From: Candidatus Gastranaerophilales bacterium
GTDB lineage: Bacteria; Cyanobacteriota; Vampirovibrionia; Gastranaerophilales; Gastranaerophilaceae
Length of the DNA stretch: 64,000 bases
Reading direction: 5' to 3'
NCBI GenBank assembly: GCA_944326555.1
Contig: CALVEK010000005.1
Span: 1 to 64,000 of the forward strand
How positions within the stretch are numbered: the stretch's first letter is position 1; each line of letters begins with the position of its first letter. Position numbers and translations under genes: made by a program. Below, piece by piece: positions 16,981 to 47,697 of this stretch. The notes under the pieces are model-generated. The model did not search any database. It was not told the origin of the DNA and saw nothing but the letters and a program-made list of their open reading frames with translations.

Positions 16981-17652
16981 ATGGGAATGTCCGCCTCTCA
17001 GGCCAGATATTTATGTCTAACAGCAAGAAAGAACAACGTGGAGTTTGAAGTTCAACAAACTACACAAGCAAAGATGTTGTTAGCTCAGCAACTTGATACA
17101 GAAGCTCTTTTGTGGAGCAACGGCATGAATATTCAACATCTTTATTATTCAAAAGATGGAGACGGTTCAAGCACTCAAGATATGCAAAGACTTTCTTATA
17201 GTTTGGTAACTGCTTCTGTTGAAGATGGTGGTCTTGGTATGCAGGTCCGTGATTCTTATGGCAGATTGGTTGTATCAGAGCTGCCTGATCCTATGCCAGA
17301 AGGAAAAACCATAAAGGATTATGTTGTTGAACCTTATTGCGGTCAGGCTGATTATTTTGAAACAAACTTAAAAACTGGTAACTGGACTATCCAAAAACTT
17401 ACAGGTGAGGGTTGGACTGATCAAACTATTGACGGTGCCAGCTTTATATACACCGGTGTTGACTCAGGCGATTTGGCTATTGCTGAGGCTGAATATGATG
17501 CAAAAGTTGAAAAACTTGAAAGACAAGACAAACAGTTTGACATGCGTATTCAACAGTTATCAACTGAACAAAAGGCCATAGAAAATGAAATGGATTCTGT
17601 TAAAAAAGTTATAGACAAAAACATCGAAGAAACATTCAAGACTTTCGGTTAA
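16981..17652 (+). CDS. ASQAR-family protein with coiled-coil tail
   Basis: A 223-aa protein of a family I cannot name. The N-terminus MGMSASQARYLCLTARK is shared with the truncated gene at the left edge and is followed by an amphipathic helix (EVQQTTQAKMLLAQQLDTEALL). The middle region is globular. The C-terminal ~55 residues (LAIAEAEYDAKVEKLERQ ... KKVIDKNIEETF) are a predicted coiled coil. There is no signal peptide. The N-terminal helix is reminiscent of the unstructured export-competent N-termini of flagellar hook/filament-type proteins, but that is only a resemblance. AAAAGGAG lies upstream. Confidence 0.8.
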   Translation: MGMSASQARYLCLTARKNNVEFEVQQTTQAKMLLAQQLDTEALLWSNGMNIQHLYYSKDGDGSSTQDMQRLSYSLVTASVEDGGLGMQVRDSYGRLVVSELPDPMPEGKTIKDYVVEPYCGQADYFETNLKTGNWTIQKLTGEGWTDQTIDGASFIYTGVDSGDLAIAEAEYDAKVEKLERQDKQFDMRIQQLSTEQKAIENEMDSVKKVIDKNIEETFKTFG

Positions 17653-18660: not shown

Positions 18661-19116
18661 TTGGGTATAGATGGTTTTTCAATGTCAAATTTGGGTTTGC
18701 AACGTAATATGACGTCTGCTCAATTGGCTAATGAAGCAGAGGTTACAGCCAGACAAAGTTTGGAAAATCAAATTGCTGATGTTGATGGTGTAGGTAAAAG
18801 AGAAAAAGTCGGTAAAAAAGATGAGGATGCCGCATTTAACGGTATGGTCCCTTTTATACCAAACGATGAAAACAACAATGAATCTCCAAATGAAGGCGGT
18901 GAAAATAAAAATCAGCAGCCTCCCGTAGATTACTCTGCTCTTGTTGATGATGAAGAAGTTGATAAATATCATTTTAGGTTTAATGCAAATGATATGATAG
19001 AAATTTGGGATACAGAAACAAATGAAATAATCAAAACAATATCTCCTGATATGGCGAGGAAAGTTATCGGTAATATAGAGGAATTGCCGGGAGTGTTAGT
19101 TAACAGAAAAATTTAG
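18661..19116 (+). CDS. FlaG-like small protein
   Basis: A 151-aa protein. TTG at 18661 has AGAGG upstream; the next in-frame ATG is at 18682. The N-terminus is helical (LQRNMTSAQLANEAEVTAR) and the middle is low-complexity and Asn/Pro-rich. The C-terminal ~50 residues (YHFRFNANDMIEIWDTETN, then IIKTISPDMARKV) resemble the FlaG domain, whose core reads like 'V.V.D.eTgEVIR.IPpee'. FlaG is a filament-associated protein, but no flagellar genes are visible. It converges with rqcH, overlapping by 4 nt. The similarity is short. Confidence 0.5.
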   Translation: MGIDGFSMSNLGLQRNMTSAQLANEAEVTARQSLENQIADVDGVGKREKVGKKDEDAAFNGMVPFIPNDENNNESPNEGGENKNQQPPVDYSALVDDEEVDKYHFRFNANDMIEIWDTETNEIIKTISPDMARKVIGNIEELPGVLVNRKI

Positions 19117-44528: not shown

Positions 44529-44632
44529 ATTCTTCCCTATCCTTGTAATGTTTCGTACTACAAATTTATTACAAACAAACAAGATAATCAATTTTTATGC
44601 TAAAATACCCTTGGAGAACTATAGGGTTAAAA

Positions 44633-45556
44633 ATGATAAAATACGCTGTAAATCTAATAAAGAATACTTTTCATCCGTTGCAGGTGCCTGATGGTGTTCA
44701 GGTAGAGCATGGTCAGCTTGTTCTTGTGAGAACTGAAAAAGGTGAAGAAGTTGCAAAAGTTTTTTTAGTTAATGATAAAATTGCAAAAATTTGGCAAAAA
44801 AACAGGCCTGAATTTTTGCCGTTAGTTAGAGTTTTGAATCAGAATGATTTGTCTGTATTAGATGATCTCAAATTCGCAGAAGAAGAGGCTTTTAAAACGT
44901 GTAAAGAGCTTGTTGCTCAACATAATTTGTGTATGAATCTTGTTCAGACTAAGTATACGTTTGATAAGAAAAAGATAACTTTTTATTACACAGCTCCTGA
45001 AAGAGTTGATTTCAGAGGTCTTTTAAAAGATTTAACTCAGGTATTTAAAAGAGTTCGTATTGATTTAAGACACATTGGAGTCAGAGACGAAACCTCATTG
45101 CTTGAAGGCAACGGATTGTGCGGGCGTCCATTTTGTTGCTGTACTTTCTTAAGAAAGTTTGACTCTATAAATATAAAATTGGCAAAAGATCAGGGTATGC
45201 CGATTACTCCCGGAAAAATATCAGGTACTTGCGGAAGACTCTTGTGTTGTCTTAATTATGAGTACAAAAATTATTTGGATGCAGCAAAAGACATGCCTCC
45301 AATCGGTTCGGGTGTTATGACTCCTGATGGTTTGGGCAGAGTTTGTTCTTTGCATTTTCTCAGTAATGAACTTTCCGTAAAAACTGAAGACGGTAAAATA
45401 AAAAATTATAAAAAAGATGAAATTGAAATGGTTGACGGTGATGTAAACATTGATATTGATATTCAAGACACATCGGCTTATCAGGAACAATCTGATTACA
45501 ATGTTGACATAAGACAACTGGAAGACGATAGAAACAGTTCTACGGGAAATGTTTAG
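44633..45556 (+). CDS. PSP1-domain protein (RicT/YaaT family)
   Basis: 307 aa from the ATG at 44633 (TAGGG upstream; a longer reading from 44597 has its start within a -10-like element). PSP1 domain: VQVEHGQLVLVRTEKGEEVA ... VDFRGLLKDLTQVFKRVRID. A cluster of cysteines follows (GLCGRPFCCCTFL, GTCGRLLCCLNYEY), which in Bacillus RicT helps bind Fe-S clusters with RicA and RicF for RNase Y regulation. The FlhA-domain gene lies 29 nt downstream. Confidence 0.88.
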   Translation: MIKYAVNLIKNTFHPLQVPDGVQVEHGQLVLVRTEKGEEVAKVFLVNDKIAKIWQKNRPEFLPLVRVLNQNDLSVLDDLKFAEEEAFKTCKELVAQHNLCMNLVQTKYTFDKKKITFYYTAPERVDFRGLLKDLTQVFKRVRIDLRHIGVRDETSLLEGNGLCGRPFCCCTFLRKFDSINIKLAKDQGMPITPGKISGTCGRLLCCLNYEYKNYLDAAKDMPPIGSGVMTPDGLGRVCSLHFLSNELSVKTEDGKIKNYKKDEIEMVDGDVNIDIDIQDTSAYQEQSDYNVDIRQLEDDRNSSTGNV

Positions 45557-45585: not shown

Positions 45586-47049
45586 ATGAAAGATACAAGA
45601 ATGCAATATTGTATAAAATCTGTACCAAGTGATGATACTTTTCAGATGGAATCTCTTCTGAATGAAATGTCTGCTTTGGGTTGGGAATTGTATACCATGC
45701 ATGAAGTTGAAGCTGATGATGGATACAATTACAACTGCATTTTTGTAAAAGAAGTTGATAATTTGGAGACTGAAATTGCAGATGAAGTAGATGAACCGTT
45801 TGGTTTCCACTCACAGATGCACAAGATGATATCTGCTCAAAATGAGCCGTATGAAAAGTGTGTTGATATTCAACACAAGATTAAAGATAAAAGAAAAAGA
45901 ATTAATAGCATAAAATCTTTAATTGATGAGACGAATGAAACACAACGTCAAGAGTTAAATGATGAAATGTTTAAAAACCTTGAAGAGTTAAAAGAACTTA
46001 GAAAACAGCTTCAGGTTACGATTTCGCCGGATATTATGATAGACAAAATCGGTGAAGACAAAATTAAAATTAAACTTAGCGAAGAAAATATCGATCTTGT
46101 AAATCCTGATATGGATGCAAGTCTTGTAGCTCAAAGTGTAAAGGTAAGGCAGAATCTTGCCGAAAGCCTCGGTTATATCATTCCTAAAATTAAATTTGAA
46201 AATGATGAGTCTTTACAGGCAAATGAATTTGAAATCGACGTAAGGGGTGTCTGTGCCGCTAAGGGCGTGTGTTATTGCGGGTATTTGATGTTTTTTAAAG
46301 ACGATTTAAATATAAATAAAGCTCCTAAAGATGCGATTAAAGACTCAGATCCGATTACGGGAAAGACTGTTTATTGGATTCCTGTAGAAAAAACCAAAGA
46401 TTTTTGGGTAAAAGGTTTGGATGCATCTTCTTATATTGCAAGAATACTTGAATACGTGTGTATAAAATTTGTTGAAGAAATTTTTGATTATAACGATATT
46501 AACAGATATATAGAAATTGTCAGTGAAGATAATTTGTATCTTATTGAAAATATTATTCCTGACTTTGTTTCTGTTGCTGAGTTGAAATTTATTTTGACAA
46601 GTTTGATTAAAGAAAAAGTTTCCGTAAAAGATATTGTCTATATTTTTGAAAAAATTAACGACTTTGCTGATGAAGAAACAAAAGAAGATTTGTTAAGCAG
46701 AGTCAGACACTCTCTTTCAAGACAGATTTCAAAAAGCATTGCAAATGAAAATAATTTGATACAGGCTTTTGAACTTTCGCAAGAGTCTTTAAAATACCTT
46801 GAATCAAAAATATCATCAAAAAATACCGTTATTAGAATCGACAATAATAAAGTTAAGACGATAGTTTCTAATATTTACAAAGCTGTTGATAAGTTTTCTA
46901 TCAATTCTGAGGAAATTATATTGTTAGTTCCAATTGAACTCAGACAAGTCATTAGTATAATTTTTTCTCAATTGATGCCGAACATTAAGGTTGTTGCAAA
47001 AGAGGAAATTTCAGCAGGCTATACGATGGAAATAGTTGATAGAGTATAG
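45586..47049 (+). CDS. Soluble protein with an FlhA/SctV cytosolic (export-gate) domain
   Basis: 487 aa with no membrane segment. Residues ~5-65 resemble DUF4177 (YCIKSVPSDD ... LNEMSALGWELYTMHEV). About 85-150 is charged and helical. From ~155 on the sequence follows the C-terminal domain of flagellar FlhA / type III SctV: QNLAESLGYIIPKIKFEND, NEFEIDVRGV, ITGKTVYWIPVEKTKDFWV, YIARILEYVCIKFVEEIFD, then LIENIIPDFVSVAELKFIL and KEKVSVKDIVYIFEKINDF, ending LLSRVRHSLSRQIS. The eight-helix membrane half of FlhA is missing and no flagellar gene is adjacent. It sits 29 nt after the PSP1 gene. Confidence 0.78.
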   Translation: MKDTRMQYCIKSVPSDDTFQMESLLNEMSALGWELYTMHEVEADDGYNYNCIFVKEVDNLETEIADEVDEPFGFHSQMHKMISAQNEPYEKCVDIQHKIKDKRKRINSIKSLIDETNETQRQELNDEMFKNLEELKELRKQLQVTISPDIMIDKIGEDKIKIKLSEENIDLVNPDMDASLVAQSVKVRQNLAESLGYIIPKIKFENDESLQANEFEIDVRGVCAAKGVCYCGYLMFFKDDLNINKAPKDAIKDSDPITGKTVYWIPVEKTKDFWVKGLDASSYIARILEYVCIKFVEEIFDYNDINRYIEIVSEDNLYLIENIIPDFVSVAELKFILTSLIKEKVSVKDIVYIFEKINDFADEETKEDLLSRVRHSLSRQISKSIANENNLIQAFELSQESLKYLESKISSKNTVIRIDNNKVKTIVSNIYKAVDKFSINSEEIILLVPIELRQVISIIFSQLMPNIKVVAKEEISAGYTMEIVDRV

Positions 47050-47136: not shown

Positions 47137-47697
47137 ATGTTTGAAACAGTTTTGTTGGTTGTTGGTATAGCTATAGTAGTTGGTTTGTATTTTGTATACG
47201 CAAATGTGATAAAAGCAAAAAACAATGTACTTGAAGCACTATCCGGTATTGATGTTCAATTAAAAAAACGTCATGATCTTGTTCCTAATATTTTAACAAT
47301 TGCTAAAAAATTTATGGAACATGAGAACGAACTTTTTGAAAAGGTAACAGAGCTTAGAACTCAAGCAATGAATGCTCCATCAGGTTCAAAGGCAAAATTT
47401 GCTGCTGAGGGGATGTTGGATAATATGATGAGCAAGTTGCTTGTTTCTGTTGAAAATTATCCTGAGCTTAAATCCAACGATACAATGGTGCAGGCTATGC
47501 GCACATATAATGAAGTGGAAGAACATATTGCAGCTGCTCGTAGATTCTACAATTCGGCTTTAACTCAGGTTAGAAATACTGTTCAGATTTTTCCGGGTTC
47601 TTTATTTGCAGGTCTTGCAGCCGATGTTATTGGCTATAGTTATTTTGAAGCGAGTGAGGCTGACAGAGCTTCTGTTGATGCTAGCCAGTATTTGTAA
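47137..47697 (+). CDS. LemA-family protein
   Basis: 186 aa. One N-terminal membrane helix (ETVLLVVGIAIVVGLYFVY), then the LemA helical bundle with ALSGIDVQLKKRHDLVPNIL, AEGMLDNMMSKLLVSVENYPEL and AARRFYNSALTQVRNTVQIFP, which are the family's conserved segments. AAGGAG precedes the ATG. Function is poorly defined; a membrane-bound periplasmic or surface-exposed role is usual for the family. Followed by a strong terminator. Confidence 0.93.
   Translation: MFETVLLVVGIAIVVGLYFVYANVIKAKNNVLEALSGIDVQLKKRHDLVPNILTIAKKFMEHENELFEKVTELRTQAMNAPSGSKAKFAAEGMLDNMMSKLLVSVENYPELKSNDTMVQAMRTYNEVEEHIAAARRFYNSALTQVRNTVQIFPGSLFAGLAADVIGYSYFEASEADRASVDASQYL

What the first reader, a model, noticed from the sequence alone, without database searches (positions are those of the whole stretch)
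45586..47049. Soluble, stand-alone FlhA/SctV cytosolic domain fused to a DUF4177-like head
The C-terminal two-thirds follows the FlhA_C pattern through several consecutive segments, but the eight-helix export-gate membrane domain is absent and replaced by a DUF4177-like domain and a helical linker. No flagellar or type III gene is adjacent. FlhA_C normally docks chaperone-substrate complexes at the gate. A detached version paired with a PSP1 gene suggests a repurposed substrate-docking or regulatory module. The FlaG-like and ASQAR proteins in the same window carry faint flagellar echoes.
Basis: partly seen in the sequence, partly recalled or inferred. Interest (0 to 1): 0.75.

Follow-up and report, generated by a model that had tools for sequence, protein, structure and literature searches.

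The report
Soluble FlhA tail protein, gut cyanobacterial order
Nearly every member of one order of non-photosynthetic gut relatives of Cyanobacteria carries a free-floating copy of the cytosolic half of the type III export gate protein FlhA, with its membrane half replaced by a new small domain and its known cargo-binding and switching residues changed, which points to a repurposed accessory part of a second, non-flagellar export machine.

Summary
The 487-aa ORF at 45586-47049 is an FlhA cytosolic domain (FHIPEP E=2.3e-51, profile 321-654 of 657; AlphaFold model vs solved FlhA_C Z about 31). It has no membrane half, a DUF4177-like head and a helical hairpin. It is no accident: 143 of 144 sampled order (Gastranaerophilales) genomes carry it at about 490 aa, it is under purifying selection, and it was not found in other orders of the class.

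The genome holds two export gates: a flagellar one (C) and a second, non-flagellar one (B), with FliE/F/H/I, FliMN, FliOPQR, FlhB and FlhA-B. The protein groups with FlhA-B, not with flagellar FlhA, and persists in 8 of 10 genera that lack flagellin and gate C. PSP1 (RicT) linkage is confined to the genus and its nearest kin.

A detached docking module is unlikely. The cargo dimple is lost (F459 to T/S in 99 of 103, T490 mostly R/K) and the GYXLI switch is replaced by a near-invariant 'SEE'; the ring-forming subdomain D3 stays conserved.

Best reading: an order-specific soluble FlhA_C paralogue acting as accessory or regulator of gate B. The partner is inferred. New variant of a known kind.

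The parts
45586..47049 (+). Soluble FlhA_C paralogue (called A), 487 aa
45598..45756 (+). N-terminal DUF4177-like head, residues 5-57 (beta-alpha-beta-beta), motif LLNxMxxxGWELYxxxE...YNCIF; as conserved as the FlhA_C core
45757..45837 (+). Low-confidence variable loop, residues 58-84
45838..46023 (+). Helical hairpin, residues 85-146, in place of the membrane half
46024..46059 (+). FlhA-type linker, residues 147-158 (SPDxM), resembling NPNxMYE of FlhA-B rather than the C-type linker
46060..47046 (+). FlhA_C fold, residues 159-487 (D1-D4)
   Evidence: Z about 31 to 6ch1/7amy
46078..46086 (+). Residues S165-E166-E167, replacing G368-Y369-R370 of the GYXLI switch (S 101/103, E 94/103, E 101/103)
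46348..46359 (+). Dimple site: D255 kept (D456), T258 in place of F459
46441..46443 (+). Dimple site: R286 in place of T490
44597..45556 (+). ricT (PSP1 family), upstream neighbour in the genus and nearest kin only; not considered part of the system
47137..47697 (+). LemA-family gene, downstream neighbour in a few genus members; not considered part of the system

Best explanation
A is an order-specific paralogue of the cytosolic domain of FlhA-B, the export-gate protein of a flagellum-derived, non-flagellar type III system (B) present throughout Gastranaerophilales. It arose on the B side of the FlhA family, lost the eight-helix membrane domain and gained a DUF4177-like head on a helical hairpin. 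It probably works as a soluble accessory or regulator of gate B. The D3 (ring-forming) fold is retained, so it could form its own ring, co-assemble with, or cap the FlhA-B ring. The conformational switch (GYXLI) and the chaperone-cargo dimple are replaced, so it would not cycle or dock late cargo as FlhA does. The conserved head would bring in a partner or signal. Shown: fold, missing membrane half, grouping with B, order-wide conservation, independence from the flagellum, loss of dimple and switch residues. Inferred: partnership with gate B, ring formation, role of the head, direction of regulation.
For: Unrooted ML tree: A is one group (100/100); C plus reference flagellar FlhAs form one group (100/100); A lies on the B side. 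A and B share the (N/S)PxxMY linker motif that C lacks. A is in 143/144 order genomes and in 8 of 10 genera that have no flagellin, no long FliP and no FlhA-C, but keep gate B. Purifying selection: pN/pS 0.14-0.19 overall and 0.06-0.11 in the head. D3, which forms the SctV_C ring (PMC8223533), is conserved as strongly as the D1 core, D4 least. F459, T490 and GYXLI are replaced; GYXLI drives FlhA_C domain motion and the dimple binds chaperone-cargo (PMC9431611).
Against: A is never in an operon with B genes in the loci read (nearest about 15 kb, G041). B exists without A in G024 (98% complete), G025 and in sister orders f9/f14/f15, so A is not obligatory for B. B is almost universal in the order, so co-occurrence carries little statistical weight. 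Ring formation and binding were not tested. Descent from B does not prove working with B.
Confidence: 0.42

Rival explanations
1. A has left export altogether. The FlhA_C fold serves as a cytosolic scaffold (possibly a ring) for an unrelated process, with the DUF4177-like head as the active or sensing part.
For: No linkage to export genes; neighbours change freely between genera. Dimple and switch are lost and D4 diverges. The head is the most constrained part between close relatives.
Against: Only found in genomes of an order where gate B is near-universal; the fold core and D3 are kept.
Confidence: 0.3
2. One reading: a detached docking platform that collects chaperone-substrate complexes for a gate.
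For: The FlhA_C fold is complete. Substrates of B may exist (ASQAR proteins). A might use a new site.
Against: F459 to T/S (99/103) and T490 to R/K/other, whereas flagellar FlhA-C keeps F and T, and FlhA-B keeps T with Y at 459. No chaperone gene is linked in the loci read.
Confidence: 0.12
3. A regulates the flagellum (gate C).
For: The window's own genome is flagellate by gene content (8 flagellin hits, gate C).
Against: Kept in 8 of 10 genera without flagellin or gate C; in the tree it lies away from C.
Confidence: 0.05
4. A decaying relic or assembly artefact of a split flhA.
For: Fast evolution relative to B (tree branch lengths).
Against: Intact about 490-aa frame in nearly all of 143/144 order genomes, pN/pS below 0.2, invariant head motif, no adjacent membrane half.
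Confidence: 0.02

Closest known systems
FlhA cytosolic domain (FlhA_C; Salmonella, B. subtilis, Vibrio structures 3a5i, 3mix, 7amy)
   Same: Four-subdomain fold over about 330 residues, linker position, conserved core residues (R391, G399, W465, D553)
   Different: No membrane domain; DUF4177-like head plus hairpin; GYXLI replaced by SEE; dimple F459/T490 lost; not in an export operon
SctV (injectisome export gate)
   Same: Same fold (Z about 23-30)
   Different: Weaker sequence match (2.7e-28 vs 1.7e-47 for FlhA); no membrane half
FlhA-B, the second full-length FlhA in the same genomes
   Same: On the same side of the tree; shared PxxMY linker motif
   Different: Full-length, in the fliE-fliF-fliH-fliI operon, dimple T490 kept
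H. pylori HP1575 (FlhB2/FlhX), a FlhB homologue (listed in PMC2864241; that it is a detached FlhB C-domain usable as a spare part is from my own knowledge)
   Same: A free-standing paralogue of an export-gate cytosolic domain
   Different: FlhB, not FlhA; no added head domain that I know of
DUF4177 (PF13783) / RraB (PF06877)
   Same: Weak profile hits of the head in 28/48 and 14/48 relatives; GWE motif
   Different: DUF4177 below its curated cut-off in this genome; function of DUF4177 unknown

Membership tests
FlhA export gate protein (FHIPEP) | Eight-helix membrane domain | tested here: not met
   only profile 321-654 matched; no membrane half in or near the gene
FlhA export gate protein (FHIPEP) | FlhA_C fold with subdomains D1-D4 | tested here: met
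   Z about 31, 326-338 residues
FlhA export gate protein (FHIPEP) | GYXLI switch motif | tested here: not met
   S 101/103, E 94/103, E 101/103 at 368-370
FlhA export gate protein (FHIPEP) | Hydrophobic cargo dimple (D456, F459, T490) | tested here: not met
   D kept (100/103); F459 is T84 S15; T490 is R68 K10
FlhA export gate protein (FHIPEP) | Homononameric ring | not testable with these tools
   Monomer prediction only; D3 conservation is compatible
FlhA export gate protein (FHIPEP) | Gene lies with export/basal-body genes | tested here: not met
DUF4177 (PF13783) | Profile match above curated cut-off (25 bits) | tested here: inconclusive
   14.2 bits in own genome; 28/48 relatives weakly, best 0.0064
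SctV of an injectisome | Membrane domain | tested here: not met
SctV of an injectisome | Secretin and needle genes in the genome | not tested

The most novel reading that the evidence does not exclude
A whole bacterial order runs a type III export gate with two kinds of FlhA_C subunit: the membrane-bound FlhA-B and a soluble, switch-dead, dimple-less paralogue whose added head reads a cytosolic signal, forming a heteromeric or stacked ring that gates a non-flagellar secretion system of gut bacteria.
Probability: 0.2. Interest if true: 0.85.

Novelty: new variant of a known kind. Interest (0 to 1): 0.6.

Why it matters
FlhA_C is regarded as a working part of the membrane gate. An order-wide soluble paralogue offers a natural separation-of-function variant: fold kept, switch and dimple replaced. 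It also draws attention to a second, near-universal, non-flagellar export system in Gastranaerophilales, including members that earlier papers counted as having only partial flagellar gene sets (PMC3787301, PMC4040986, PMC5877343). If A works with gate B, it would give a handle on what that system exports in gut bacteria.

Tried and rejected
PSP1/RicT as partner: adjacency limited to the genus and nearest kin. An adjacent broken membrane half: none in 120 loci. Flagellum-specific role: fails on phyletic pattern. Relic: fails on conservation. Solved-fold match for the head: Foldseek gave nothing at E<=0.001; VIA-align matches of the head alone stay at about Z 5-6 (KCTD5 C-domain, GNAT, ACT), i.e. 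common arrangements, so the head's fold family is undecided. The hairpin matches only generic coiled coils (Z about 8). Paralogues of the head+hairpin elsewhere in the genome: none by profile. Literature searches for a soluble FlhA_C paralogue or for type III secretion in Melainabacteria returned nothing on point in the open-access library; absence there is weak evidence.

Full report
Observation. The ORF at 45586-47049 encodes 487 aa. The C-terminal part is FlhA cytosolic domain: FHIPEP E=2.3e-51, residues 134-477 to profile 321-654 of 657; NCBIfam FlhA 1.7e-47 over SctV 2.7e-28; FlhA_C chains in the PDB by sequence to 3.5e-27. An AlphaFold2 model from 48 sequences (pLDDT 84) aligns to FlhA_C structures over 326-338 residues at Z about 31. 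There is no membrane half in the protein, nor anywhere in 120 relatives' loci. Residues 5-57 form a beta-alpha-beta-beta head with a GWEL motif; DUF4177 is hit weakly in 28 of 48 relatives, below cut-off in the window's own protein. A helical hairpin (85-146) joins head and FlhA_C.

Distribution. The host is a Candidatus Gastranaerophilales bacterium, judged by the titles of its nearest relatives. The protein (A) is in 54 of 58 order genomes of the first sample and in 143 of 144 order genomes of a class-wide sample (162 genomes with a match, less 18 of other orders and G024; one of the 143, G268, lacks the head in the assembled frame). In other orders of the class only full-length FlhA was found and the head+hairpin profile gives no match better than E 0.01. 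It is under purifying selection (pN/pS 0.14-0.19 against six congeners; synonymous sites near saturation).

Genome context. The genome carries two full-length FlhAs. Type C goes with canonical FliP-FliQ-FliR-FlhB gates (L045, L145, L052) and type B with FliE/FliF/a FliG-position protein/FliH/FliI (L044, L051, L049); B has its own FliMN, FliO, FliP, FliQ and FliR (L144, L146). The FliG-position protein is not recognised as FliG by Pfam (only MgtE_N, 0.0014). In more basal families the B locus also holds FlgB/C/F/G-like rod genes and a transglycosylase (by reading; SLT by Pfam). The short (B) FliP is in 57 of 58 order genomes; FlhA-B is listed in 54, the four others being 75-88% complete assemblies. 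Ten genera of the window's family (G023, 24, 25, 27, 28, 30, 31, 33, 34, 35) lack flagellin and the long FliP and show no FlhA-C, but keep B (FliF counts). Eight of these ten keep A. So A is not a flagellar gene; gate B is the only export gate it always has beside it in the genome. Sister orders with both gates lack A, so A is probably younger than the two-gate state.

Origin. In an unrooted maximum-likelihood tree of FlhA_C domains, A is one group (100/100), flagellar references plus C another (100/100), and A falls on the B side. A and B share the PxxMY linker motif. Long branches in A mean the exact attachment to B is not resolved.

Function. On Salmonella numbering (G368, D456, F459 and T490 fall in register), A keeps D456 but has T/S for F459 in 99 of 103 and mostly R/K for T490, and replaces G368-Y369-R370 by S-E-E almost invariantly. 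C keeps GYXLI apart from V at 372; B keeps G368, L371 and T490, with Y at 459. GYXLI drives open-close motion and the dimple is where chaperone-cargo binds (PMC9431611). A therefore should neither cycle nor dock cargo as FlhA does. D3, the ring-forming subdomain in SctV (PMC8223533), is as conserved as the D1 core (mean top-residue frequency 0.64 vs 0.65), D4 least (0.44), and the head 0.66. This suits a ring-competent, conformationally different accessory subunit with an added head, most simply acting on gate B. Binding, ring formation and the head's ligand are not shown.

PSP1. The upstream gene is ricT. Adjacency holds across the genus and its nearest relatives (18-112 nt) and nowhere else in the loci read; in other genera A sits by a Skp/BamA/nucleoside phosphorylase block (named by reading) or unrelated genes. 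It is a neighbour, not a shown partner.

Related oddities. A few congeners (G002, G008, G011, G013) encode another rearranged form, D: the FliG-position head domain of system B, about four predicted membrane helices and FlhA_C, which supports the idea that FlhA_C modules are being reused around gate B. The ASQAR protein of the window (16981-17652) shares a 36-aa N-terminus with many otherwise different proteins in all 14 sampled genomes of the lineages that carry the close B type, and none in eight genomes outside them, five of which have a more distant B-like FlhA and three no FlhA. This is confounded with phylogeny but makes these proteins candidate B substrates.

Verdict. New variant of a known kind; interest 0.6.

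Noticed in passing
window 16981-17652: 'ASQAR' protein: its first 36 residues recur at the N-terminus of many unlike proteins in all 14 sampled genomes of the lineages with the close B-type gate (up to 9 per genome, also non-flagellate ones) and in none of 8 others. Candidate type III export signal; confounded with phylogeny.
   Followed up: partly
L055:9892-11976, L056:8221-10305, L156:1333-3453, L157:1498-3600: Chimera D: FliG-position domain of system B, about four predicted membrane helices, and FlhA_C (altered dimple in the two checked), next to an enolase-like gene in at least three of the four loci.
   Followed up: partly
L044:5706-12625, L051, L144:6677-10691, L146: Second, order-wide, non-flagellar export system (B), kept in genera without flagellin; earlier papers describe such genomes as having partial flagellar gene sets.
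   Followed up: partly
L144:9556-9912, L146:7491-7859: Small exported-looking protein of unknown family between fliQ and fliR of gate B (no Pfam hit).
   Followed up: no
window 18661-19116: FlaG-like protein, just under Pfam cut-off (23.0 vs 23.8 bits, E=9.2e-5).
   Followed up: no
L044:12698-19354: Prophage-like gene block directly downstream of fliI of the B operon in the window's genome (by reading).
   Followed up: no
G000:C9:45611-46015 and similar: Flagellin_N domains in unusually long open frames (about 600-1400 aa) in several genus members.
   Followed up: no
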